From assembly GCA_013140575.1 (NCBI GenBank), contig JABFSN010000219.1, positions 1 to 58,651 of the forward strand: a stretch of DNA of 58,651 nt, in the 5' to 3' direction. The first letter of the stretch is position 1; the number at the start of each line of letters is the position of its first letter. Below, in pieces: positions 2,441 to 55,629 of this stretch. Both the position numbers and the translations under genes were made by a program. The notes below the pieces were generated by a model. It was not told the DNA's origin and did not search any database. It saw only the letters and a list, made by a program, of their open reading frames with translations. This DNA is from Phycisphaerales bacterium (GTDB taxonomy: Bacteria > Planctomycetota > Phycisphaerae > UBA1845).

Positions 2441-3967
2441 CTAGGGACAACAACCCGTGCTGCCGGCGAAGGCGTCGAGATCGCCGAGAATGTCGAAAAC
2501 GTCGACGAAGCCGTCCCCGGACGGACAGGGAATGATGTCCGTACTCAGCAAATCGCACTTGGAATAGTCGCCCGCGAAGGCGCCCAGGACGCATTCGATG
2601 TCGAAAATGTCGACGGTGCCGTCATGATTCGCGTCGCCGTAAATGTTGGGTTGCGACGCGCACAGGCAGTCGATGCAGCGCTGCATGGTGCATATCCCGC
2701 CGTCGCAGCCGCCGTCGTTGATGCAGTCGCAGCCGGGCGGAATCGACTCGGGAACCTTGACCGAGACCGTCAGCGATGCGGGGGTACCGGCCTTGAACAG
2801 TCCAATGGTCACGTCACCCGCGATGGGCGGCGCGTTGCAATCGAATCGGAAGTTGTACATCGTTGACCAGCGCAGCGCATTTCGATTGGCCGCCGCCACG
2901 CCGCCCGGCGAGGGCGTGATCCATGTGACGTTGCCCGCGGCGTGAACGCCGCCCCAATCCGTGCCGTCGTACGGCTCGCCGCTGTGGTAATTGACGTCAT
3001 GAAACTCGACGTTGGAGACGGCCAGCCCGTCGCCCACGGGGACGCGGAACATGCTCGCCGCCCGGTCGGAATTCATGTTGTACAAGGCGTATTCGTAGTG
3101 CCAGACGCCGCCACCGAGGTCGGTCACTTTGTATCCAAGGATGAAGCGCCCCTCGCCGGAAACGTAGGCGTCGGTCACCTTGGCGTCGGGGTCCAGCGTC
3201 GGCCAAGCCTCGATTGCCGCCTGCTGCGCGTGCGTCGATCCCGAAAACGAAAGATTCCAGATGCCGCCGTTGAAGCTGCCCACCGTGACCTGACGCCAGG
3301 ACGCGTTGTTGAACCGTTCGGCCGGGGATTCGTCGGTGGTGACGTAATGCGACTCGCCGAGCCACGTCGCGCCGACGTTTTGCGCCGGATCGACGTCGGC
3401 CGTCGCGACCTGCAGCCGCTTGTAGGTCGCGTTCCCGGCGAGGTTCCAATTCAGGACGTAAGGGTAGGCAAAAACGCCGGTGTAGGCGTTGATTTCCGAG
3501 CGCGGTCCCAACCCCGGCTGGGATCCGTTCAGGAACGACGAATAGGTGTCCGAACACTGCAACCCGAGCCAATCGCAACTCGGCTCGCTCGCACAATTGC
3601 CGCACAACGTCGAATCGGCCGCACAGAAACCATGCTTGACCCAGGACATCCCCAGCTGCTCGAATCGCGTCGAACCGGCGACGGTGCGCAGGCGGTACAG
3701 GTTCTGGGCGATGACCGGGTGTTGATTGCACTGCGATCCGCCGGTGCACTCGATCCAAATGGCCCGCAGGGTGCCGATGTTGCACGACGTGGTTTCCATC
3801 GAATAGCCGGAAAGGGTCCCCACCGCGCCATTTTCGGAAAACGCTCCGCCGACGGTGGACACGATTACATCCGGTCCCGCGGCTTGCCCGCCAGGCGCCA
3901 CCGCTCCAAAAACGACCATGCCGATCCCTAACGCCAACATCCGTCGGGTTCGATTCATTTGCTGCAT
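2441..3967 (-). CDS. Secreted protein with C-terminal dockerin-like repeats
   Basis: This 508-aa protein has a Sec signal peptide (MNRTRRMLALGIGMVVFGAV, then PGGQAA) and a large beta-rich body with scattered Cys (for example CNIGTLRAIWIECTGGSQC). A Cys-rich linker follows around residues 412-440 (DCINDGGCDGGICTMQRC). The last 68 residues hold a pair of dockerin type I-like calcium loops, GDANHDGTVDIFDIECVL and SGDGFVDVFDILGDLDAF. Such tails are frequent in planctomycete secreted proteins of unknown role and do not by themselves imply a cellulosome. The ATG at 3967 is chosen for the GGAAGGG just upstream; a second ATG at 3958 is possible. No enzymatic domain is recognised in the body. Confidence 0.75.
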   Translation of the reverse strand: MQQMNRTRRMLALGIGMVVFGAVAPGGQAAGPDVIVSTVGGAFSENGAVGTLSGYSMETTSCNIGTLRAIWIECTGGSQCNQHPVIAQNLYRLRTVAGSTRFEQLGMSWVKHGFCAADSTLCGNCASEPSCDWLGLQCSDTYSSFLNGSQPGLGPRSEINAYTGVFAYPYVLNWNLAGNATYKRLQVATADVDPAQNVGATWLGESHYVTTDESPAERFNNASWRQVTVGSFNGGIWNLSFSGSTHAQQAAIEAWPTLDPDAKVTDAYVSGEGRFILGYKVTDLGGGVWHYEYALYNMNSDRAASMFRVPVGDGLAVSNVEFHDVNYHSGEPYDGTDWGGVHAAGNVTWITPSPGGVAAANRNALRWSTMYNFRFDCNAPPIAGDVTIGLFKAGTPASLTVSVKVPESIPPGCDCINDGGCDGGICTMQRCIDCLCASQPNIYGDANHDGTVDIFDIECVLGAFAGDYSKCDLLSTDIIPCPSGDGFVDVFDILGDLDAFAGSTGCCP

Positions 3968-4558
3968 GTTTCCCTTCCGCCAACCGGTGCGATGCGCCAT
4001 GACCATGCGATCCGTGACGCCGCCCGGCCGATCCTTAACGATTCCTGCGAGCTCCAATTCGCCGATTGCGCTGGATTTCCTGACATCCCTTTGGTTTGTT
4101 CGGGCGCGCAGGCGTGCCGCGGTCGATACACCGTTCGCATTTATGGCCGCGATCGGCGGTGCCCAAACATACGACCCCGCACCCACGACGACAACGCGGA
4201 CGTGCCCAGTTTATCCGACGCTTGCGACGCACACAAGTAGTTTTCGGGCGATTTGGTATGCGTTTTTACACTTTAATTGTTTTCGAGGTTTACCCATAGG
4301 CAGAATCGGCAGTCCGGGAGGCGGAGACGGCGGGTTCGTCGTTTTCGTGAAGCCTCGCGCGCAGGCGCGGACCAATTGCGGCGACCACGGCACGCGGGTT
4401 GCGGTTTTGAGAATTCGATCGCGGGATTCCGTCCTGGCCGGCAGGGGTTCGAGGATCGCCACGGCGCGGCACGCGGATTGCCGAGCGTTCGATCGCGCGG
4501 CGCGCGGGGGCACGGGTTTTGATTTCGGAATGTTTTGTTTTCCATCCGATGGATCCGA
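3968..4558. other. Non-coding stretch between divergent units
   Basis: No convincing gene is seen. An AT-rich patch at about 4250-4300 is the likely promoter area for the minus-strand dockerin-like protein, but I cannot assign boxes with confidence. Open frames across the region overlap each other and lack ribosome binding sites. Confidence 0.5.
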
Positions 4559-4567
4559 TGCTATGAT
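4559..4567 (+). promoter_or_regulatory. Extended -10 promoter for a candidate ncRNA
   Basis: TG-C-TATGAT is a near-perfect extended -10 element (TATGAT at 4562-4567). Upstream, weak T-rich matches at about 4538-4544 could act as a -35. The predicted start of transcription is near 4573-4574, exactly where a stem begins (see the ncRNA entry). Confidence 0.55.
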
Positions 4568-4572
4568 GATGC

Positions 4573-4810
4573 GTGTCGCCAAGATCGGGTTCTGCCGTAC
4601 GCGACAGGGAGCCTTTTTGCGCTGAACCTATCGTAGAACCCGGGAGGCCGTGATCGGAAGTGCAAAAACATGCCCGCTTGTCGGGACTTCTGCGCACCCT
4701 GCCGGCCACCCACGTTGCATCAGGGTTCTGCCAATTTCTCCCATCGGCACGTGCGGATCCGGGCTTGGGACTTGAGGGCTTGCCGTTTTGACGACAAGCC
4801 CCTTTTTTTT
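4573..4810 (+). ncRNA. Candidate structured non-coding RNA of about 237 nt, class unknown
   Basis: An extended -10 promoter and an intrinsic terminator bound this segment, and no credible ORF with a ribosome binding site lies inside. Visible helices are TGTCGC (4574-4579) with GCGACA (4601-4606), AGAACCC (4635-4641) with GGGTTCT (4723-4729), GGCCG (4646-4650) with CGGCC (4703-4707), GAAGT (4657-4661) with ACTTC (4686-4690), and a short CCCG/CGGG hairpin inside. The 10-mer GGGTTCTGCC occurs twice (4587-4596 and 4723-4732), and both copies can pair with the one AGAACCC, so two exclusive folds are possible. I see none of the signature motifs of SRP RNA, tmRNA or RNase P RNA. 6S RNA or a novel class remains possible. 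Confidence 0.5.
4776..4810 (+). terminator. Rho-independent terminator
   Basis: GGGCTTG (4776-4782) pairs with CAAGCCC (4795-4801) around a short loop and is followed by eight Ts (4803-4810). It ends the candidate ncRNA; no plus-strand protein gene lies just upstream. Confidence 0.8.
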
Positions 4811-4874
4811 GCGCCTTCGGCGTCGCGTCGGCCTCGCCGGTGTACGTGGTTCGCGGTCGCGACGGCGTTTCCTT

Positions 4875-4976
4875 CGCCCCTGCCGGGGCGGGATTCCATG
4901 TGCGTCGGCATCCACGGGTTGCGCGATGCTGCGCATCGCTCCACCCGTGGCTACCGTCCGCCGCCCCGCCGGGGCG
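4875..4976. repeat. Composite GC-rich palindromic repeat
   Basis: The inner hairpin pairs CCACGGGT (4912-4919) with ACCCGTGG (4943-4950) and contains GCGATGC/GCATCGC as a second stem. Flanking arms are CGCCCCTGCCGGGGCGG (4875-4891) and CCGCCCCGCCGGGGCG (4961-4976). This type of non-coding repeat is common in planctomycete intergenic regions. It lies in the leader of the downstream GlmU-like gene. Confidence 0.65.
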
Positions 4977-5098
4977 AAATCACGTGCAGGACACGAACCG
5001 GCGCTATTGGTCGCCGGCCACCTGTTGATCCCGCGCCCGCATATCTGCCGATGGAGTTCGCGTGCGGCCGCGACGGCCGCGATGTATATTGACCCACC

Positions 5099-6388
5099 AT
5101 GACGCGAATCATCTTATTTGAAGACGCAGCATTCGCCGACCTGCTGCCGTTGACCTACTGGCGATCGGTGTTCGAGCTGCGCTGCGGGCGCCGGACGTTG
5201 TTCGACCGCTGCGCGTCCCGTTGGGGGGTCGCGCCCGTCGGCGTGCTGACGCGTTCGTGGATCGCGAACGTGGCGGCCGACCGGCTGGGCCTTCCGGTCA
5301 ACGAACCGCTTGAGCCCGGCGACGTGCTGATCAACCCGCGCTGGTTGCCGGAACGCGGGACGACGCTTCCGAAACCGCCGTTTCTGGGAACGTGCGAGGA
5401 CGGCATCGCCTGCATCGTATGCGACAAGGCGTTGGCCGCCCTGCTGGGTCCGCAGGATTTTCTGGATCGCAAACGCTGGTCGGAATTGATCGAGCAGATC
5501 GGCCGGGCATCCCTTCCGGGCGCGATGATCGGCTACCCGTGGGATCTGGTGTTGCGCAACGGTCAACTGATCGCGGAGGACTGGCGGGCGTCGGACGCGG
5601 GCATCGCCGGCGACGTACACGCGTCGGCCGTGCTGATCAATCGCGACGCGATCCACGTGGCGCCCGGCGCTCGCGTTCAGGCGATGGCGTTGCTGGACGC
5701 GAGCGACGGCCCGGTGATCGTGGAAAAGGACGCGGTCATCGGTTCGCACGCGGTCGTCGTTGGACCGGCGTGCGTGGGCGAACGTTCGCTGGTCAAGCCG
5801 CACGCGTTCCTGCACGGGGGCAGCAGCATCGGACCGGTGTGCAAGGTGGCCGGCGAGGTGGATGCCTGCGTGTTCGACGGCTATTCGAACAAGGCCCACG
5901 ACGGGTTTTTGGGGCACTGTTACGTGGGCAGTTGGGTGAACCTGGGCGCGGGGACCACCAATTCCGATTTGAAGAACACGTACGGCACGGTCCGCGTGCC
6001 CATCGGCGGCAAGGAGGTCGATTCGGGGCAGATGTTTTTCGGCGGAGTCGTCGGCGATCACGTCAAGACCGGCATCCAACTGGCGTTGACCACGGGCAGC
6101 GTCATCGGTTTCGGCGCCAACGTGGCGTGCAGCCGCATGCCGCGGACGTTCGTGCGTTCGTTCAGTTGGGTGACGGATCGCGGCGTGGAGGAGGGCGACG
6201 TGCGGCGGTTGGCGTCCACCGCGGCGACGGTCATGGCGAGGCGGAACGTGACGATGACCAAATCCGAATCCGATTTGTTCAACAAGCTGCCCGAGATCGT
6301 GGCCTATTTCGAGCCCGACGTCATCGCCCACCGGGCGGCGTACGAATCGAGTGAACATCGCGGTCAGGCGAAACCGGTGACGCAGTGA
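5099..6388 (+). CDS. GlmU-like sugar nucleotidyltransferase/acetyltransferase
   Basis: This 429-aa protein matches the alternative GlmU family, with an N-terminal pyrophosphorylase-like half and a C-terminal left-handed beta-helix built of hexapeptide repeats. It starts MTRIILFEDAAFADLLPLTY and contains the family marks LPLTYWRSVFELRCGRRTL and, in the helix, CYVGSWVNLGAGTTNSDLKN and GTVRVPIGGKEVDSGQMFFG. The family is thought to make UDP-N-acetylglucosamine or a related activated sugar for cell-envelope polymers. The N-terminal half diverges from classical GlmU and lacks a clear LAAGxGTRM loop, so the nucleotidyl step is less certain than the acyltransferase fold. It is a single gene; the next gene begins 64 bp later. 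Confidence 0.85.
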   Translation: MTRIILFEDAAFADLLPLTYWRSVFELRCGRRTLFDRCASRWGVAPVGVLTRSWIANVAADRLGLPVNEPLEPGDVLINPRWLPERGTTLPKPPFLGTCEDGIACIVCDKALAALLGPQDFLDRKRWSELIEQIGRASLPGAMIGYPWDLVLRNGQLIAEDWRASDAGIAGDVHASAVLINRDAIHVAPGARVQAMALLDASDGPVIVEKDAVIGSHAVVVGPACVGERSLVKPHAFLHGGSSIGPVCKVAGEVDACVFDGYSNKAHDGFLGHCYVGSWVNLGAGTTNSDLKNTYGTVRVPIGGKEVDSGQMFFGGVVGDHVKTGIQLALTTGSVIGFGANVACSRMPRTFVRSFSWVTDRGVEEGDVRRLASTAATVMARRNVTMTKSESDLFNKLPEIVAYFEPDVIAHRAAYESSEHRGQAKPVTQ

Positions 6389-6452
6389 TCGACGGGGACG
6401 CGACGCGAACAACGAGCGCACCCGCCGATCGGCGGGCGGAAGCAGGTCGAAC

Positions 6453-7115
6453 ATGACGACTCGACGCATCATGGCCAAGCTGTCACGCCTGGCGCTTAAC
6501 TCCGCACCCGCGCTGGTGACGCTGGCCGGCGCCACCGGATGCGGATTCGACCTGCTGCTGAATCAGACGGCGTCGTTCGGCCCGTCGGGTTCGAACGCGA
6601 CGGCCGGCGCCGCGGTCGGTTCCGGTCAGCGGGGGACGTTCGACGTGGTCGTCGAGAACAACACGCCCTACCGGGCGATCTTCACCTACGGGGTGTTTGA
6701 CAACACCGACACGGAGAGCGCGCCGGCGTTCTTCCAATACTCGCCGGACAGCACGCGGCGCCCACCGCGGGCCCAGTCGTCGCTGGAAGCCAACGAAACG
6801 TCCCCGGTGATTTCGCTGCCGTGCGCCCGCGTGTTTTCCATCGGAAGCAGCGGGTTGATCGGCCGGATCATGGAAAACGAAACCGGCGCGTTCGACGAGA
6901 CCGCGTTGCTCGACGGGGTCGGCTTTGCATCGCAGGCGATTGACGGCGATGACCCGACGGAACCGGACCGGGGATTCGCCCCCGCGTTCGAGGCCCTGCT
7001 GGGCGCCGATTTCAACTGCGGCTCGCTGCTGCACATCACGCTCGAATTCGACGACGTCGCCGACGCTCCGTTCCGCGTCGCGATGCAGGTCTACGCGGCA
7101 CGAAACCCGCCGTGA
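6453..7115 (+). CDS. Putative lipoprotein of unknown function
   Basis: This 220-aa protein has a charged N-terminus, a hydrophobic stretch and a lipobox-like ALVTLAGATGC with Cys at about residue 30, so it is probably membrane-anchored. The mature part includes a VVVENNTPYRAIFTYGVFDN segment and two further Cys residues that could form a disulfide. No family is recognised. The start at 6453 follows an AGG-containing ribosome binding site. It sits between the GlmU-like gene and scpA in the same orientation, with gaps of 64 and 157 bp. Confidence 0.6.
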   Translation: MTTRRIMAKLSRLALNSAPALVTLAGATGCGFDLLLNQTASFGPSGSNATAGAAVGSGQRGTFDVVVENNTPYRAIFTYGVFDNTDTESAPAFFQYSPDSTRRPPRAQSSLEANETSPVISLPCARVFSIGSSGLIGRIMENETGAFDETALLDGVGFASQAIDGDDPTEPDRGFAPAFEALLGADFNCGSLLHITLEFDDVADAPFRVAMQVYAARNPP

Positions 7116-10044: not shown

Positions 10045-10458
10045 CTAATCTGCCGCGGCCCGCCGCTGGGCCTTTTTCGCGGCGACGCCGCATAGGCGCG
10101 TCAGCGATTCGCGGAGTTCGCACAACGTTACGTCGCCGCCCGATCGGGCGACGCAGACGAGATCCATTCCGGGCGGCAATTCGTGCTGCACGTGCCGGAA
10201 CGCCTCGCGGATCAGCCGTTTGACCCGGTTCCGCACCACGGCACCGCCGATCTGCCGTCCGACGGCCAAACCCAGACGACAATACGCCAGCTCATTACGC
10301 GCGGCGAAAACTTTCAACCGATCATCCGTCGCGCTGCACCGGACCTCGAACACGCGGTCGAACTCCCGCCGCAGCCGGAGCCGCCGTGACCGCGGCAACG
10401 TCAACGGACGCGCTGGTGACGAGCCGGTTTCCGTGGTCCGTTTCGATTTACCCGGCAT
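10045..10458 (-). CDS. rnpA: Ribonuclease P protein component
   Basis: This 137-aa basic protein binds RNase P RNA for 5' maturation of tRNA precursors. It contains LRLRREFDRVFEV, LGLAVGRQIGGAVVRNRVKR and LIREAFRH, covering the RNR signature. Length is typical. The ATG at 10458 gives the family-like start (MPGKSKRTTETGSSPARPLT), with a slightly long N-terminal extension. In most bacteria rpmH precedes rnpA; here the upstream bases hold the promoter of a divergent TPR gene and no rpmH. Confidence 0.93.
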   Translation of the reverse strand: MPGKSKRTTETGSSPARPLTLPRSRRLRLRREFDRVFEVRCSATDDRLKVFAARNELAYCRLGLAVGRQIGGAVVRNRVKRLIREAFRHVQHELPPGMDLVCVARSGGDVTLCELRESLTRLCGVAAKKAQRRAAAD

Positions 10459-10483
10459 CGGGTGTTCCCTCGTAATTCCACGT

Positions 10484-10512
10484 TTGAACGCCCGGGGCAA
10501 TGCTCCTATACT
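10484..10512 (+). promoter_or_regulatory. Promoter of the TPR protein gene
   Basis: TTGAAC (10484-10489) and TATACT (10507-10512) are separated by 17 bp. The predicted transcript starts near 10519, which rules out the in-frame ATG at 10517 and supports the GTG at 10559. Confidence 0.6.
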
Positions 10513-10558
10513 GATTATGGTCGCTCGCCGATACAAACGATATCCGGAGCACCGCCAC

Positions 10559-11875
10559 GTGATTTCCCGCAGCTGCCCCAGTTCTCCCATTCGACGGCGT
10601 GCGTTGGCTCGATCGGCCCGCACGGCGGGGGCGTGCGTCGTTCTGGCCGTCGGGATCATCGCGGCGGTCACGTCCGGCCAGACGCGAGTCGAAAACCAGG
10701 CCGATCCCACGTCGGCCGGTCTGGAACCGTTGGGGTCGTCCGCGGTGACCGATCCGTTCGGGGGGCGGGGGGCGGCCGGCGGTTCGATCGTCGGCCCGAT
10801 TTCGCCAACGTCGTTTTTCGAATTGGATCGCAGCGTCCTCGACGATCCGGTTCTGTTATTTCCCGAATACGCAGCGGGCGAGATCGGATTCACGCCCCGG
10901 CCCACGTCGATCCTGCGGCCGCTGCCGGGATTCGCCAACCGGCCGTTTGATTTTTCGCGGTTTTCGCTGCTGTTGCCGCGGTCGATGGCGGGCGACGCGT
11001 CGGCGGCGGCGCGATCGGCCCAATTGCCCGCACCGGATTCGGATGACGAGTTCGGTTTTGACCGCGATCCGCTGTTCGATCTAACGTCGCCGGCGAACGG
11101 GTTCGTGAATCCATATGCGATGCCGCCGCAGCCGATGGATGGCGTTCCGACGGCCGGATCGGAAGCCGCGCGCGATACATCGAGTTTTGCGGGCGAATCC
11201 AATGCGTCGGTCGGGACCGCCGCACGGCCAGGGCTTGCGCCCCGCGATTTCACCGATATCGCGGGGCGCCGCGGCGACACGGCCGACGAGCGAACGCCCG
11301 CCGACGAGGCCCTCCAACGGACGTTGTCGTTCACCCGACCGATCGGCAATGGCGCGGCCGATGCGGCGTCGTCATTGGATCATGAACCCGGCGAGCGTTA
11401 CCTGCGCCAGGCGGAAGAATTCATGCAGTCCGGTCAGTTCCTTCGCGCCGTCGCGCAATACGAATTGGCCATCGTCGCGAACCGCAGGAATGCACGGGCG
11501 TATCTTGGTCAGGCCCATGCCACGCTGGCGGCCGGGCAGTATCGAATCGCGGCGCGGCGGATACTGGCCGCGTTCAGACAGTTCCCCGAACTGATCGAAT
11601 CGGACATCGACCTGCGGCGGGACATTTCCCCGTCATCGGCATTGTCGGTGTGCCGCGCCGAATTGCATGCCCATGTGGAACGGGACACCGATTATTCGCT
11701 TCGTTTTTTGCTCGGCTATCTGGACTATTTCAGCGGCGACGCATCGTCGGGGATGGACCATTTGCGCGCCGCGGCATTGGCCGCGCCGCCGGATTCGATT
11801 GTCGCCACGTTGCCCGATCGCCTCGCCGCGGCCCGCGCTCGGCGCGACACGGGCGCATCGACGTCTCCCCGGTAA
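10559..11875 (+). CDS. Secreted or anchored TPR-containing protein
   Basis: This 438-aa protein has an Arg-rich N-terminus and one hydrophobic segment (TAGACVVLAVGIIAAVTSGQ), fitting a signal peptide or anchor. A long region of low similarity and low complexity follows. From about residue 280, tetratricopeptide-like helices appear (YLRQAEEFMQSGQFLRAVAQ, then NARAYLGQAHATLAAGQYRI). TPRs usually bind partner proteins; no partner can be named. The GTG at 10559 is chosen because GGAG lies 9 bases upstream and the promoter places the transcript start after the alternative ATG. It converges with hutF, 18 bp apart. Confidence 0.7.
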   Translation: MISRSCPSSPIRRRALARSARTAGACVVLAVGIIAAVTSGQTRVENQADPTSAGLEPLGSSAVTDPFGGRGAAGGSIVGPISPTSFFELDRSVLDDPVLLFPEYAAGEIGFTPRPTSILRPLPGFANRPFDFSRFSLLLPRSMAGDASAAARSAQLPAPDSDDEFGFDRDPLFDLTSPANGFVNPYAMPPQPMDGVPTAGSEAARDTSSFAGESNASVGTAARPGLAPRDFTDIAGRRGDTADERTPADEALQRTLSFTRPIGNGAADAASSLDHEPGERYLRQAEEFMQSGQFLRAVAQYELAIVANRRNARAYLGQAHATLAAGQYRIAARRILAAFRQFPELIESDIDLRRDISPSSALSVCRAELHAHVERDTDYSLRFLLGYLDYFSGDASSGMDHLRAAALAAPPDSIVATLPDRLAAARARRDTGASTSPR

Positions 11876-52057: not shown

Positions 52058-52180
52058 ATGTCCCACGTCTTTATCAGTTACAGCCATGACTCGCCCGGTC
52101 ATTCCGACCGGGTTCGGGAACTGGCCGATCGGCTCATTTCACAGGGAATAGCGGTCGAACTCGATCAATACCATCCCCGG
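52058..52180 (+). pseudogene. Truncated SEFIR/TIR-domain gene
   Basis: The frame encodes MSHVFISYSHDSPGHSDRVR and ELADRLISQGIAVELDQYH, the first 40 residues of a SEFIR domain (TIR-like signalling fold). It stops being SEFIR-like exactly where a palindrome begins (52181); downstream the frame reads repeat sequence and ends at 52282. A full SEFIR is about 150 residues. Such domains usually sit at the N-terminus of proteins with the same NTPase and TPR parts as the next gene, so this looks like the remnant of that protein's original effector domain. Confidence 0.6.
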
Positions 52181-52227
52181 GCCGGGTGCCCCATCTCTTG
52201 CGCAGCAAGAGGTGGGGGATGCCCGGC
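52181..52227. repeat. Palindrome at the SEFIR breakpoint
   Basis: GCCGGG at the left end pairs with CCCGGC at the right end, with CTCTTGC and GCAAGAG as inner arms around GCA. It has one or two unpaired bases per arm. It marks the point where the SEFIR coding sequence ends. Confidence 0.75.
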
Positions 52228-52278
52228 GGGTGTTGGTCGCACGATCTCCGCGCCACGCCCGACTGCCGGAGAAGCTGC

Positions 52279-55200
52279 ATGATTCGTCCCGACGCAAACC
52301 AACCCCCGAACGCATCGCCCGGCACGCCGCCCGCCATCAGACTCGCAATGGAGGCGACGCCGTCGCCGGAACTGATTCGGTGGGCCGAATCGGCCGAGTA
52401 TGTTCCCCTCGCGGTCGTGTTCACGGACGTGATCGGAAGCACGCGACTGACCCGGAGCCTGGGCGATGAAAAGTGGAAGGAGATCCGCGAGACACATTTC
52501 CGACGTGCCCGCGAAGCGATGAGCTCACAGCGCGGCTTCCAAATCAAAACCATCGGCGACGCGGTGATGGCCGTCTTCCCCAACTCGGTCAATGCCGTTT
52601 CATTCGCCATGGACCTCGAACGCAACACCGGCGACGAACGGATTCGCATTCGCGCCGGCGTCCATATCGGCGAATTGGAGTGGAACAAGCTCGACGTCTT
52701 CGGCAACACCGTCAACATGGCGGCTCGAATCTGCCGCATGGCCAAGGGCGGTGGTATCTGGATTTCCGAGCAGGTGATGCAAGGTCTGGTTGCCCGCAAT
52801 CCCGAATGGCGAGCGGGCTGGACTTGCCACGAGAACGTCTCGTTGCCCGGACTTGAACCCGATCTCTACAGACTGTGGTCGCTTCCGCCGTCGCGGGACG
52901 GCGGCGTCGCGATCGACACCCAGAGGCGTCCGGCCGCGACCACGACACCCTCAACCGTCCCCGTACTCGTCTCTCACCATCAGCGCATCGCCCGCGGCGG
53001 GGCGGCGGAGCTTTTCGGGCGCGACGCGGAATTGAAAATGCTCGACGACGCATGGTCCTCCGCGCCGCCGAACAAGCTCAACGTGGTCACGTTCGTCGCC
53101 TGGGGCGGCGTGGGCAAGACGGCGCTGGTGAATGAGTGGGTGAACCGGCTGGCGCGGGACGGGTGGCGCGGGGCGCGGCGGGTGTTTGAGTGGTCGTTCT
53201 ACAGTCAGGGCAGCGACGAAAAGCGGGCGGCGTCGGCCGACACGTTCACAGCGGCCGCCCTGCGCTTCTTCGGCGATCCCGCGCTGGCCGACAGTCCGGC
53301 GTCGGCGTGGGACAAGGGGGTCCGGCTGGCGCAACTGGTCGCCCAGGAGCGTTCGCTGCTGGTGCTGGACGGGCTGGAGCCGTTGCAGCATCCGCCCGGT
53401 CCGGGCGGAAAGGGCGTTCAGGCGGGCGAGATCAAGGAGCCGGCCGTCGCGGCGCTGCTCCGCGGGCTGGCCCGGAACAACGCCGGGCTGTGCGTGGTCA
53501 CCACCCGCGAACGCGTCACCGACCTGTCGTCGTTCGGGGCCGCAGCACCTCAACCGGATCTCGACAACCTCTCCGAAGAGGCCGGTTCGGCGCTGTTGCG
53601 ACGCCTGCTCGAGCCGACCGATTCGAAACGGGTTCACCGGGTCGAGAGCACCGACGCGGAGCGCCGCGCGATCAGCCGCGAGGTGAAGGGTCACGCCCTG
53701 ACACTGCAACTGCTGGGCAGCTACATCCACAAAGCCCTGCGCGACGTGCGCCGCTGGCGGGAGGTGAAGTTCGTAGAGGCCGACGCCATCGTGCAGGGCG
53801 GCCATGCGTTTCGGGTCATGGACGGGTACGTCAAGTGGCTGGGCGAGAGCGGCGAGGCCGGGCGGCGGCAGTTGGCGGTGCTGCGGGTCATGGGTTTGTT
53901 CGATCGGCCGGCCGATCCGGCGTGTCTGGCCGCGCTGCGAAAGCCGCCGATCGCGGGTCTGACCGACGCGCTGGGCGGGCTTTCCGACGAGGAATGGAAC
54001 GTCGTGCTGTCGGACCTGGAGTCGATCGGGCTGGCCACCGTCGCGGAGTGGGAGCGGCCGCGGGTGAAAGGGTATGACGAAGAAACGGGGCGGGCATCGA
54101 TGAAAACCCAGCAACGTGGATACCGCGGCGACATCGGCGAGCCGGGGGAGTTCACGCCGCCCGCGCCGCCGCCGGCCGGGGCGGTCGCGGTCGACGTTCA
54201 CCCGCTGATCCGCGAGTACTTCGCGGCGCGGGTCCGCGAGACGAACCCCGACGCGTGGCGCGAGGGGCACGCCCGGCTGTTCGGGCACCTGTGCGCGTCG
54301 GTCCCCTATTGGCCGGAGGGGATGGAGGGGCTTCAGCCGCTCTACCAGGCCGTCGCCCACGGCTGCCTAGCCGGGCTGCACGAGAAGGCCCGCGCCGACG
54401 TCTTCCGGGATCGCATCCTCCGCGGCACGGAGGCCGGCGGGTATTACAGCATAAAAACACTCGGTGCGTTCGGGCCCGACCTCGGGGCCGTGGCCTGCTT
54501 CTTCGATGAGGCGTGGACACGGGTGTCGGACAAGCTCACGGAATCTCGTCGGTCGTGGCTGCTCGGTGAAGCGGCCACGCGTCTTCGCGCTTTGGGCCGG
54601 CTCACCGAGGGCGTCGGGCCGATGCGCGCGGCGTTGGGAATGGCCGTGACGGCGACGCCCCCAGACTGGCATAACGCCGCGCGTCGCGCGGGCAACTTGA
54701 GCGAGCTGCAACTGACGCTGGGCGACGCGGGGGCCGCCGTGGCCGACGGCAAGCGGAGCGTGGAACATGCCGACCGTAGCGGGGATGAGTTTCAGCGGAT
54801 CCTCAATCGCACGACGCATGCCGACGCTTTGCTCCAAGCCGATCGGCGGGACGACGCCCGGGCGTTGTTCGTTGAGGCCGAGGCCTTGCAGGGCAAGCGG
54901 CAACCGGAGTATCAACGGCTCTATTCGGTGCGGGGCTTTCAGTATTGCGATTTGATCCTGTCCGACGCGGAGCGGGCGGCTTGGCGATGCGTCTTGGATT
55001 TGAAATCTGAAATTTCAGATTTCAAATCGGCAAACGCGTGCGACGACGTGACCAACGCGTGCAACGACGTGACCGAACGTGCGACGCAGACGCTGGCCTG
55101 GGTCACGCCGATGAACTGGCTGCTTGATATAGGGCTGGACAACCTCACGCTCGCCCGGGCGGCGTTGTATCGGGCGGTGTTATCGCGAGGCGCCGCGGAG

Positions 55201-55629
55201 GGATGCGAATCCGTGGCCGGGGGTCCGTCGCCGGCCGACGCCGATCCGAATTACGGCGCCGACGATAAGACGTTGCCGGCGGCGGCGCTGACCGCTTTGA
55301 CGTACGAACACATGGCCGCCGCAGTCGATGGTTTGCGGCGGGCGGGCACGACGCACCACATACCCCGCGGGTTGCTGACGCGGGCGATATACCATTTCGT
55401 GATCGGCGACGCCGCGGCGGCCGCACGCGATCTGGACGAGGCGTGGGAGATCGCGCGGCGGGGGCCGATGCGGCTGCACATGGTGGACGTACACCTGCAC
55501 CGGGCGCGGCTGTTCCGCGACCGGGGGGCGCTGGAGGAGGCCGCCCGGCTCATCGACGAAACCGGCTACCACCGCCGCGACAAAGAGCTCGCCGACGCCC
55601 GCGCAGCCGCCCGCGGATGGCCTGCATGA
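52279..55629 (+). CDS. Class III nucleotidyl cyclase fused to a STAND NTPase and TPR-like tail
   Basis: This 1116-aa protein has three parts. Residues 44-170 are a class III cyclase domain: metal Asp50 (FTDVIGST) and Asp94 (KTIGDAVMAVF), the base-selecting pair Lys90/Asp139 that favours ATP, and transition-state Asn146/Arg150 (GNTVNMAARI). Residues 245-540 are a STAND-type NTPase: Walker A GGVGKTA (276-282), Walker B LLVLDG (360-365), CVVTTRERV and GHALTLQLLGSY. The remainder is helical and TPR-like. Homologous NTPases often carry SEFIR domains, and a SEFIR relic lies directly upstream. The ATG at 52279 has GGAG seven bases before it. Inferred role: a sensor that triggers cyclic-nucleotide synthesis, possibly in defence; the activity and ligand are unknown. 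Confidence 0.85.
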   Translation: MIRPDANQPPNASPGTPPAIRLAMEATPSPELIRWAESAEYVPLAVVFTDVIGSTRLTRSLGDEKWKEIRETHFRRAREAMSSQRGFQIKTIGDAVMAVFPNSVNAVSFAMDLERNTGDERIRIRAGVHIGELEWNKLDVFGNTVNMAARICRMAKGGGIWISEQVMQGLVARNPEWRAGWTCHENVSLPGLEPDLYRLWSLPPSRDGGVAIDTQRRPAATTTPSTVPVLVSHHQRIARGGAAELFGRDAELKMLDDAWSSAPPNKLNVVTFVAWGGVGKTALVNEWVNRLARDGWRGARRVFEWSFYSQGSDEKRAASADTFTAAALRFFGDPALADSPASAWDKGVRLAQLVAQERSLLVLDGLEPLQHPPGPGGKGVQAGEIKEPAVAALLRGLARNNAGLCVVTTRERVTDLSSFGAAAPQPDLDNLSEEAGSALLRRLLEPTDSKRVHRVESTDAERRAISREVKGHALTLQLLGSYIHKALRDVRRWREVKFVEADAIVQGGHAFRVMDGYVKWLGESGEAGRRQLAVLRVMGLFDRPADPACLAALRKPPIAGLTDALGGLSDEEWNVVLSDLESIGLATVAEWERPRVKGYDEETGRASMKTQQRGYRGDIGEPGEFTPPAPPPAGAVAVDVHPLIREYFAARVRETNPDAWREGHARLFGHLCASVPYWPEGMEGLQPLYQAVAHGCLAGLHEKARADVFRDRILRGTEAGGYYSIKTLGAFGPDLGAVACFFDEAWTRVSDKLTESRRSWLLGEAATRLRALGRLTEGVGPMRAALGMAVTATPPDWHNAARRAGNLSELQLTLGDAGAAVADGKRSVEHADRSGDEFQRILNRTTHADALLQADRRDDARALFVEAEALQGKRQPEYQRLYSVRGFQYCDLILSDAERAAWRCVLDLKSEISDFKSANACDDVTNACNDVTERATQTLAWVTPMNWLLDIGLDNLTLARAALYRAVLSRGAAEGCESVAGGPSPADADPNYGADDKTLPAAALTALTYEHMAAAVDGLRRAGTTHHIPRGLLTRAIYHFVIGDAAAAARDLDEAWEIARRGPMRLHMVDVHLHRARLFRDRGALEEAARLIDETGYHRRDKELADARAAARGWPA
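54997..55028. repeat. Perfect 32-bp palindrome inside the STAND gene
   Basis: GATTTGAAATCTGAAA is followed directly by its reverse complement, with no loop. It is AT-rich inside a GC-rich gene, keeps the frame (LDLKSEISDFKS, about residues 905-916), and lies in the helical tail. Confidence 0.9.
55033..55074 (+). repeat. 21-bp tandem duplication after the palindrome
   Basis: Two 21-bp units with one mismatch encode NACDDVT and NACNDVT. The unit length is a multiple of three, so the frame is kept. It begins 4 bp after the palindrome. Confidence 0.85.

What the first reader, a model, noticed from the sequence alone, without database searches (positions are those of the whole stretch)
52279..55629. 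Cyclase-STAND-TPR protein: candidate cyclic-nucleotide signalling or defence system
A class III cyclase with all metal, base-selecting and transition-state residues visible is fused to a STAND-type NTPase with intact Walker motifs and a long helical-repeat tail. STAND proteins of this subfamily usually carry SEFIR/TIR or other effector domains at the N-terminus. Here a cyclase takes that place, suggesting that ligand sensing by the tail and NTPase drives cAMP-like signal production. No dedicated cyclic-nucleotide effector is adjacent, so the receptor would be elsewhere in the genome. The segment around it has the features of an accessory island.
Basis: partly seen in the sequence, partly recalled or inferred. 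Interest (0 to 1): 0.8.

Follow-up and report, generated by a model that had tools for sequence, protein, structure and literature searches.

The report
Immune-receptor-like protein with cyclase head
A bacterial protein built like an immune receptor (sensor tail, ATP-driven switch) carries a signal-making cyclase where its relatives carry a SEFIR or TIR effector, and a broken piece of a SEFIR domain still lies just upstream, so one lineage appears to have swapped the output of its receptor.

Summary
Window 52279-55629 (+) encodes a 1116-aa protein: a class III cyclase with all six catalytic residues (D50, K90, D94, D139, N146, R150), a STAND NTPase with intact Walker motifs, and a TPR-like superhelix. 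Its STAND subfamily ('WSFYSQG') is widespread: 456 loci in bacteria and archaea. Of 70 relatives' N-termini, 33 match TIR_2, 16 SEFIR and 11 DUF4062, with single nucleases and others; none matches the Pfam cyclase model. Beyond that: (1) a truncated SEFIR head (36 aa, 69% identical to a close SEFIR-STAND relative) lies directly upstream, and a shorter one precedes a paralogue, so the output domain was probably swapped; (2) the genome holds sibling genes, one with two tandem cyclases and one with an XRE-HTH; (3) the cyclases are under purifying selection; (4) two distant members carry divergent cyclase-like heads. Not supported: an accessory island (neighbours are core genes) or defence as a demonstrated function; no cyclic-nucleotide effector was found. 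Best reading: ligand-gated cAMP synthesis, a new variant of known cyclase-STAND architectures (soluble adenylyl cyclase, mycobacterial CHD-ATPase-LuxR proteins), built on an NLR-like receptor family.

The parts
52279..55629 (+). Cyclase-STAND-TPR gene, 1116 aa
   Evidence: GGAG seven bases before ATG
52345..52902 (+). Class III nucleotidyl cyclase domain (about residues 23-208); D50, K90, D94, D139, N146, R150 intact
52999..53838 (+). STAND NTPase core (about residues 241-520), Walker A K280, WSFYSQG motif 305-311, Walker B D364, R410
53839..55626 (+). Winged-helix-like linker and long TPR-like superhelix (about residues 521-1116), presumed sensor
   Evidence: low divergence to paralogues compared with the front half
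52058..52282 (+). Truncated SEFIR remnant: small ORF whose first ~40 codons encode a SEFIR head, then an inverted-repeat sequence; its stop TGA overlaps the ATG of the cyclase gene
   Evidence: SEFIR E=9.7e-4, below cut-off; 25/36 identical to L079; score 121 against a shuffle maximum of 58
52188..52218 (.). Imperfect inverted repeat (GCCCCATCTCTTGC...GCAAGAGGTGGGGG) interrupting the SEFIR frame; the flank after it is shared with paralogue C108
54997..55028 (.). Perfect 32-bp palindrome inside the coding sequence (peptide DLKSEISDFKS); elsewhere in the genome only in paralogue C108

Best explanation
A ligand-gated class III cyclase, predicted to make cAMP. In the resting state the ADP-bound STAND module and TPR tail hold the protein closed and keep cyclase domains apart. 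When the tail binds its trigger, ADP-to-ATP exchange opens and oligomerises the STAND module, which brings N-terminal cyclase domains together as head-to-tail pairs and switches on synthesis of a cyclic nucleotide, probably cAMP because the base-selecting pair is Lys/Asp. In this lineage the cyclase replaced a SEFIR effector on an NLR-like receptor. Shown: domains, intact catalytic and NTPase residues, purifying selection, SEFIR remnant, SEFIR-type nearest relatives. Inferred: oligomerisation-driven dimerisation, ATP specificity, trigger, downstream receptor and biological role.
For: Intact catalytic set in all four cyclase domains of the genome and in most relatives. dN/dS about 0.3 in the cyclase between paralogues (0.29/1.05; 0.20/0.68), similar to the STAND core, so the fused cyclase is maintained. 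N-terminus is the effector slot of the family (TIR_2 33, SEFIR 16, DUF4062 11 of 70). SEFIR head upstream, 25/36 identical to L079; the two closest STAND relatives found in the same order (G403, G762) are both SEFIR-STANDs. Tandem-cyclase paralogue fits a need for paired domains. The STAND-TPR model matches oligomerising receptors. The same cyclase clade is fused to other switch or sensor modules: Roc (with a C-terminal TIR), FHA, WD40, XRE-HTH.
Against: No activity data. No adjacent or genome-wide obvious cAMP receptor (only two loci with PF00027, both in redox operons). The canonical cyclase version is found in one genome only, among roughly 700 planctomycete-phylum genomes searched and the 80 best loci of the GTDB scan. 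Relative orientation in the tandem model is not confident (pTM 0.50), so the dimer is untested. In the STAND-core tree, C108 and the window gene are not clearly sisters, so cyclase gain may have happened more than once.
Confidence: 0.6

Rival explanations
1. An ordinary housekeeping or stress regulator: a cyclase-ATPase-TPR protein like mycobacterial CHD-ATPase-LuxR proteins or soluble adenylyl cyclase, sensing a metabolite and tuning cAMP, with no role in conflict.
For: Same domain order is long known; the genes sit among core metabolic genes; no defence island; one sibling carries an XRE-HTH.
Against: STAND core belongs to a family whose heads are SEFIR/TIR/DUF4062/nucleases, typical of conflict systems; a SEFIR remnant lies upstream; patchy distribution (15 of 397 genomes of the class); paralogue mosaicism.
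Confidence: 0.3
2. A Pycsar-like anti-phage cyclase that makes a cyclic pyrimidine or purine to trigger a separate killing effector.
For: PADLOC PycC models match the cyclase (E=2e-8); STAND relatives carry immune effectors; a Roc-cyclase-TIR protein shows cyclase and TIR joined in one chain.
Against: No PycTM/PycTIR-type effector nearby or among PF00027 hits; the base pair Lys/Asp fits ATP rather than UTP/CTP; PycC enzymes are not STAND fusions.
Confidence: 0.15
3. The cyclase fold is no longer catalytic and acts as a nucleotide-sensing or oligomerisation domain.
For: The divergent cyclase-like heads of L114/L159 have lost several catalytic residues, so non-catalytic use may occur in this family; inactive cyclases are described in vWA conflict proteins (Kaur 2020).
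Against: All six residues are intact in the four canonical domains of this genome; dN/dS about 0.3.
Confidence: 0.12
4. A decaying gene family: SEFIR-STANDs are breaking down in this genome and the cyclase fusions are chance products on the way out.
For: SEFIR head truncated, surrounding patch gene-poor with repeats, palindrome inside the coding region.
Against: Full-length open frames in two paralogues and no stops in the two contig-edge pieces; purifying selection in cyclase and STAND.
Confidence: 0.06

Closest known systems
SEFIR-STAND / TIR-STAND proteins of the same subfamily (L079/L108, L103, G762, L038)
   Same: STAND core 50-60% identical in the best stretches, same TPR-like tail, one-gene layout
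   Different: Effector is SEFIR or TIR instead of a cyclase
Soluble adenylyl cyclase (ADCY10)
   Same: Class III catalytic domain(s) followed by a predicted STAND P-loop module (PMC12802110); the C108 paralogue has two catalytic domains like sAC
   Different: The window protein has one cyclase domain; the STAND belongs to an NLR-like bacterial family; no evidence for bicarbonate regulation
Mycobacterial CHD-ATPase-LuxR proteins such as Rv0386
   Same: N-terminal cyclase, ATPase, C-terminal extension (ATPase from own knowledge)
   Different: No C-terminal LuxR HTH; Rv0386 selects substrate in a non-canonical way (PMC3466318), whereas here the Lys/Asp pair is canonical
Pycsar (PycC cyclase + PycTM/PycTIR)
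   Same: Class III-type cyclase related to PycC profiles
   Different: Fused to a receptor; no effector gene; different base-selecting residues
cNMP cyclases in VMAP/iSTAND2 conflict systems (Kaur et al. 2020, 2021)
   Same: Cyclase used as the messenger-making module of STAND-linked conflict systems
   Different: There as parts of multi-gene systems, linked through EAD/bDLD adaptors or direct fusions; here fused to an active STAND core of a SEFIR/TIR-type family

Membership tests
WSFYSQG-type STAND NTPase family (NLR-like) | Conserved STAND core with WSFYSQG, LLxLDGxEPLQ, Walker A and matching tail | tested here: met
   456 relatives by pattern + tblastn
Class III nucleotidyl cyclase | Two metal Asp, base-selecting pair, transition-state Asn/Arg | tested here: met
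Class III nucleotidyl cyclase | Class III cyclase fold | tested here: met
   Met for the paralogue's domains; window domain by homology (61% identical) and sequence match to Ma1120
Class III nucleotidyl cyclase | Head-to-tail catalytic dimer | tested here: inconclusive
   tandem model pTM 0.50; relative placement unreliable
Class III nucleotidyl cyclase | Measured conversion of NTP to cNMP | not testable with these tools
   -
SEFIR-STAND (bSEFIR-like) | Intact N-terminal SEFIR domain | tested here: not met
   only a ~40-residue remnant in another frame upstream
Pycsar | Neighbouring PycTM/PycTIR cyclic-nucleotide effector | tested here: not met
Pycsar | Pyrimidine-selecting residues | tested here: inconclusive
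   Lys/Asp pair of ATP-type cyclases present; PycC residues as in PMC11224242 not compared in structure
Mycobacterial CHD-ATPase-LuxR | C-terminal LuxR HTH | tested here: not met
   tail is TPR-like to the end
Soluble adenylyl cyclase-like | Two catalytic domains then STAND module | tested here: not met
   window protein has one; paralogue C108 has two
Anti-phage defence system | Defence-island context | tested here: not met
   family neighbours mostly housekeeping
Anti-phage defence system | Protection against phage | not testable with these tools
   -

The most novel reading that the evidence does not exclude
An NLR-like bacterial immune receptor whose output was rewired from a SEFIR effector to second-messenger synthesis, caught with the old effector's stump still in place, and then multiplied into paralogues (single cyclase, tandem cyclase, probably HTH-cyclase) that share a homogenised sensor tail but differ in head and switch.
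Probability: 0.4. Interest if true: 0.68.

Novelty: new variant of a known kind. Interest (0 to 1): 0.55.

Why it matters
Effector swapping on STAND/NLR receptors is usually inferred by comparing distant species; here remnant and replacement sit side by side, which makes the swap testable: same tail, different head. If active, it would be a single-chain receptor that converts ligand sensing into a cyclic-nucleotide signal, linking NLR-like immune receptors to the sAC-type cyclases, and would predict an unrecognised cyclic-nucleotide effector in planctomycetes.

Tried and rejected
First genome-contig scan with the single sequence gave nothing; the alignment scan worked. No relatives in viral contigs or phages; on plasmids only a 35%-identical stand-alone cyclase. 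Full-length AF2 did not model the cyclase, because the other homologues carry different N-termini. The tandem AF2 job could not place the two domains against each other, since all homologues aligned to domain 2. Neighbour scan of 37 relatives' loci for defence genes: a few hits (GajA, type II RM, TIR), otherwise housekeeping; no matched control was run. Some cyclase rows were first taken from the wrong strand and were replaced. Considered and rejected: the 32-bp palindrome as a dispersed repeat (only two copies).

Full report
OBSERVATION. The gene at 52279-55629 (+) is real: ATG with a GGAG seven bases upstream, 1116 aa. Pfam finds Guanylate_cyc (E=2.5e-13, residues 40-176) and, just under the curated cut-offs, AAA_16 and NACHT at 244-444. 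phmmer against the PDB finds the mycobacterial class III cyclase Ma1120 (E=3e-16). All six catalytic positions are intact: D50, D94 (metals), K90, D139 (base), N146, R150 (transition state); the STAND has Walker A K280, Walker B D364 and R410. The AF2 model of residues 240-1116 is confident and Foldseek places it with STAND-TPR protein 6MFV, Apaf-1, NRC resistosome NLRs and MalT. The cyclase was not modelled well in that job (pLDDT mostly 26-57).

THE FAMILY. A scan of GTDB species genomes with the STAND alignment found 456 relatives; the best 80 come from Planctomycetota, Verrucomicrobiota, Acidobacteriota, Proteobacteria, Chloroflexi, archaea and others. None was found in viral contigs or phages. 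Of 70 N-termini, TIR_2 matches 33, SEFIR 16, DUF4062 11, and SMEK, Mrr_cat, HNH and DUF676 esterase one each; Guanylate_cyc matches none (TIR_2 and SEFIR models overlap on the same domains). Because ranking used the cyclase-bearing query, a canonical cyclase-STAND elsewhere should have ranked high. Two members, L114 (Pyrinomonadaceae) and L159 (Hydrogenedentota), have a divergent cyclase-like head: no Pfam hit, but hhalign probability 93% and E 3e-7 to the cyclase profile, with several catalytic residues lost. They fall in different parts of the STAND tree, so cyclase-type heads look recruited more than once. In about 700 genomes of the phylum a canonical cyclase fused to this STAND was seen only in this genome.

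PARALOGUES. The own genome (5.0 Mb, 268 contigs, 96% complete) has C108: two tandem cyclase domains + STAND + tail, 1401 aa by the longest start; C231: XRE-HTH + cyclase, cut by the contig end; and C1: STAND + tail, cut by the contig start. C231 and C1 may be halves of one gene; this is not shown. All four cyclase domains keep the six residues. Between window and C108, dS is 1.05 in the cyclase and 1.23 in the STAND core but 0.21-0.35 from residue ~451 onward, the jump in identity lying near residue 520; against C1 the STAND core is 90% identical. So the tails have been homogenised, or the front halves exchanged, by recombination: siblings share a sensor but differ in switch and head. dN/dS in the cyclase is about 0.3 in all comparisons of window, C231 and C108 domain 2.

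THE SEFIR STUMP. At 52058 a small ORF starts MSHVFISYSHDSPGHSDRVRELADRLISQGIAVELDQYHPRAG, then runs into an inverted repeat and stops at 52282, its TGA overlapping the ATG of the cyclase gene (ATGA). It is the only SEFIR match in the genome (E=9.7e-4, under the cut-off, 38 positions). It is 25/36 identical to the SEFIR head of L079; the alignment score is 121 against a maximum of 58 in 300 shuffles that kept dinucleotide blocks. C108 carries a shorter stump (MTNVFISYSHDSPDHF) and shares 79% DNA identity over 117 bp around it and 77% over 77 bp just before the cyclase start. The nearest STAND relatives found in the same order, G403 and G762, are SEFIR-STANDs. The simplest history is a SEFIR-STAND in which the rest of the SEFIR was lost and a cyclase took its place before the two loci separated, or one locus converted the other. 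The STAND-core tree places the cyclase genes near SEFIR and TIR members, but C108 and the window gene are not clearly sisters (support 0.36 and 0.93 around them).

THE CYCLASE CLADE. Its closest relatives outside this genome are not STAND fusions: FHA-cyclase (L087), WD40-cyclase (L184), a chain with Roc GTPase, cyclase and C-terminal TIR (L183, Pfam E 1.5e-6 Roc, 2.3e-12 cyclase, 1.7e-22 TIR) and L088, whose pre-cyclase part resembles L183's by eye. So this cyclase is a mobile module used on several sensor and switch platforms. The tandem model of C108 shows both domains with the class III fold (domain 2: Z 22.8, 2.2 A to Rv1900c), but the mutual placement is unreliable (pTM 0.50).

CONTEXT. 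Neighbours are core genes and no mobile-element gene was identified near the gene. No defence gene of note was found by PADLOC among eight window proteins beyond generic ATPase matches of an ABC transporter. Loci of 37 relatives gave scattered defence hits and mostly housekeeping genes; no control set was run. The only PF00027 proteins in the genome are in ferredoxin and hydrogenase-like operons (operon identity read by eye), so the receptor of the messenger is unknown.

MECHANISM. Established STAND biology (Apaf-1, NLRs, MalT; own knowledge, structural match) has ligand binding drive nucleotide exchange and oligomerisation. Class III cyclases need two domains head-to-tail. The inference is that oligomerisation pairs the cyclase heads and starts synthesis; the Lys/Asp base pair points to ATP, hence cAMP. 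The tandem paralogue could pair within one chain. None of these steps is shown experimentally.

KNOWN OR NEW. Cyclase-STAND chains are known: human sAC has two catalytic domains and a predicted STAND P-loop (PMC12802110); mycobacterial CHD-LuxR proteins such as Rv0386 are known (PMC3466318; their ATPase from own knowledge). cNMP cyclases as messenger makers in STAND-linked conflict systems were described by Kaur et al. (PMC7159879, PMC8195603). I found no report of a cyclase on this SEFIR/TIR-type STAND family in the held papers, but the search was limited. Hence: new variant of a known kind. Defence remains a hypothesis.

Noticed in passing
L183 / L207 (G484:C165, around 10073-10621): One chain with Roc GTPase, class III cyclase and a C-terminal TIR domain: two possible messenger makers on one switch protein.
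   Followed up: partly
L035 (C231) 5923-6783: XRE-type HTH fused to the same cyclase (287 aa to the contig end); may be the missing front half of the C1 STAND gene.
   Followed up: partly
L114:8034-8726 and L159:223-1011: Divergent cyclase-like N-termini without Pfam match on STAND proteins from Acidobacteriota and Hydrogenedentota, with several catalytic residues lost.
   Followed up: partly
window 54997-55028 and C108:42398-42429: Perfect 32-bp palindrome inside the TPR coding region, in frame, only in these two paralogues genome-wide.
   Followed up: partly
window 52058-52282; L034 7727-8105 (approx.): In both loci the truncated SEFIR frame stays open and stops within a few bases of the cyclase start, which could allow translational coupling.
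   Followed up: no
L099 (G000:C19) 2567-3955: Another cyclase with a C-terminal helical repeat-like tail, matching PADLOC PycC (E=2e-18), next to ORFs that look by eye like Mu-type phage head genes.
   Followed up: no
L110 2767-6369 and 6240-10850: Two STAND genes of this family side by side and overlapping, one without an effector head, one with a short helical head.
   Followed up: no
G000 C108, C83, C1: Paralogues share a near-homogenised tail (dS 0.2-0.35) but a strongly diverged cyclase and STAND core (dS above 1) between window and C108: a recombination mosaic.
   Followed up: yes
L212 (NZ_CP133084.1, Nitrosomonas plasmid) 4161-5504: Stand-alone cyclase, 35% identical, on a conjugative plasmid near transposase and recombinase genes.
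   Followed up: no
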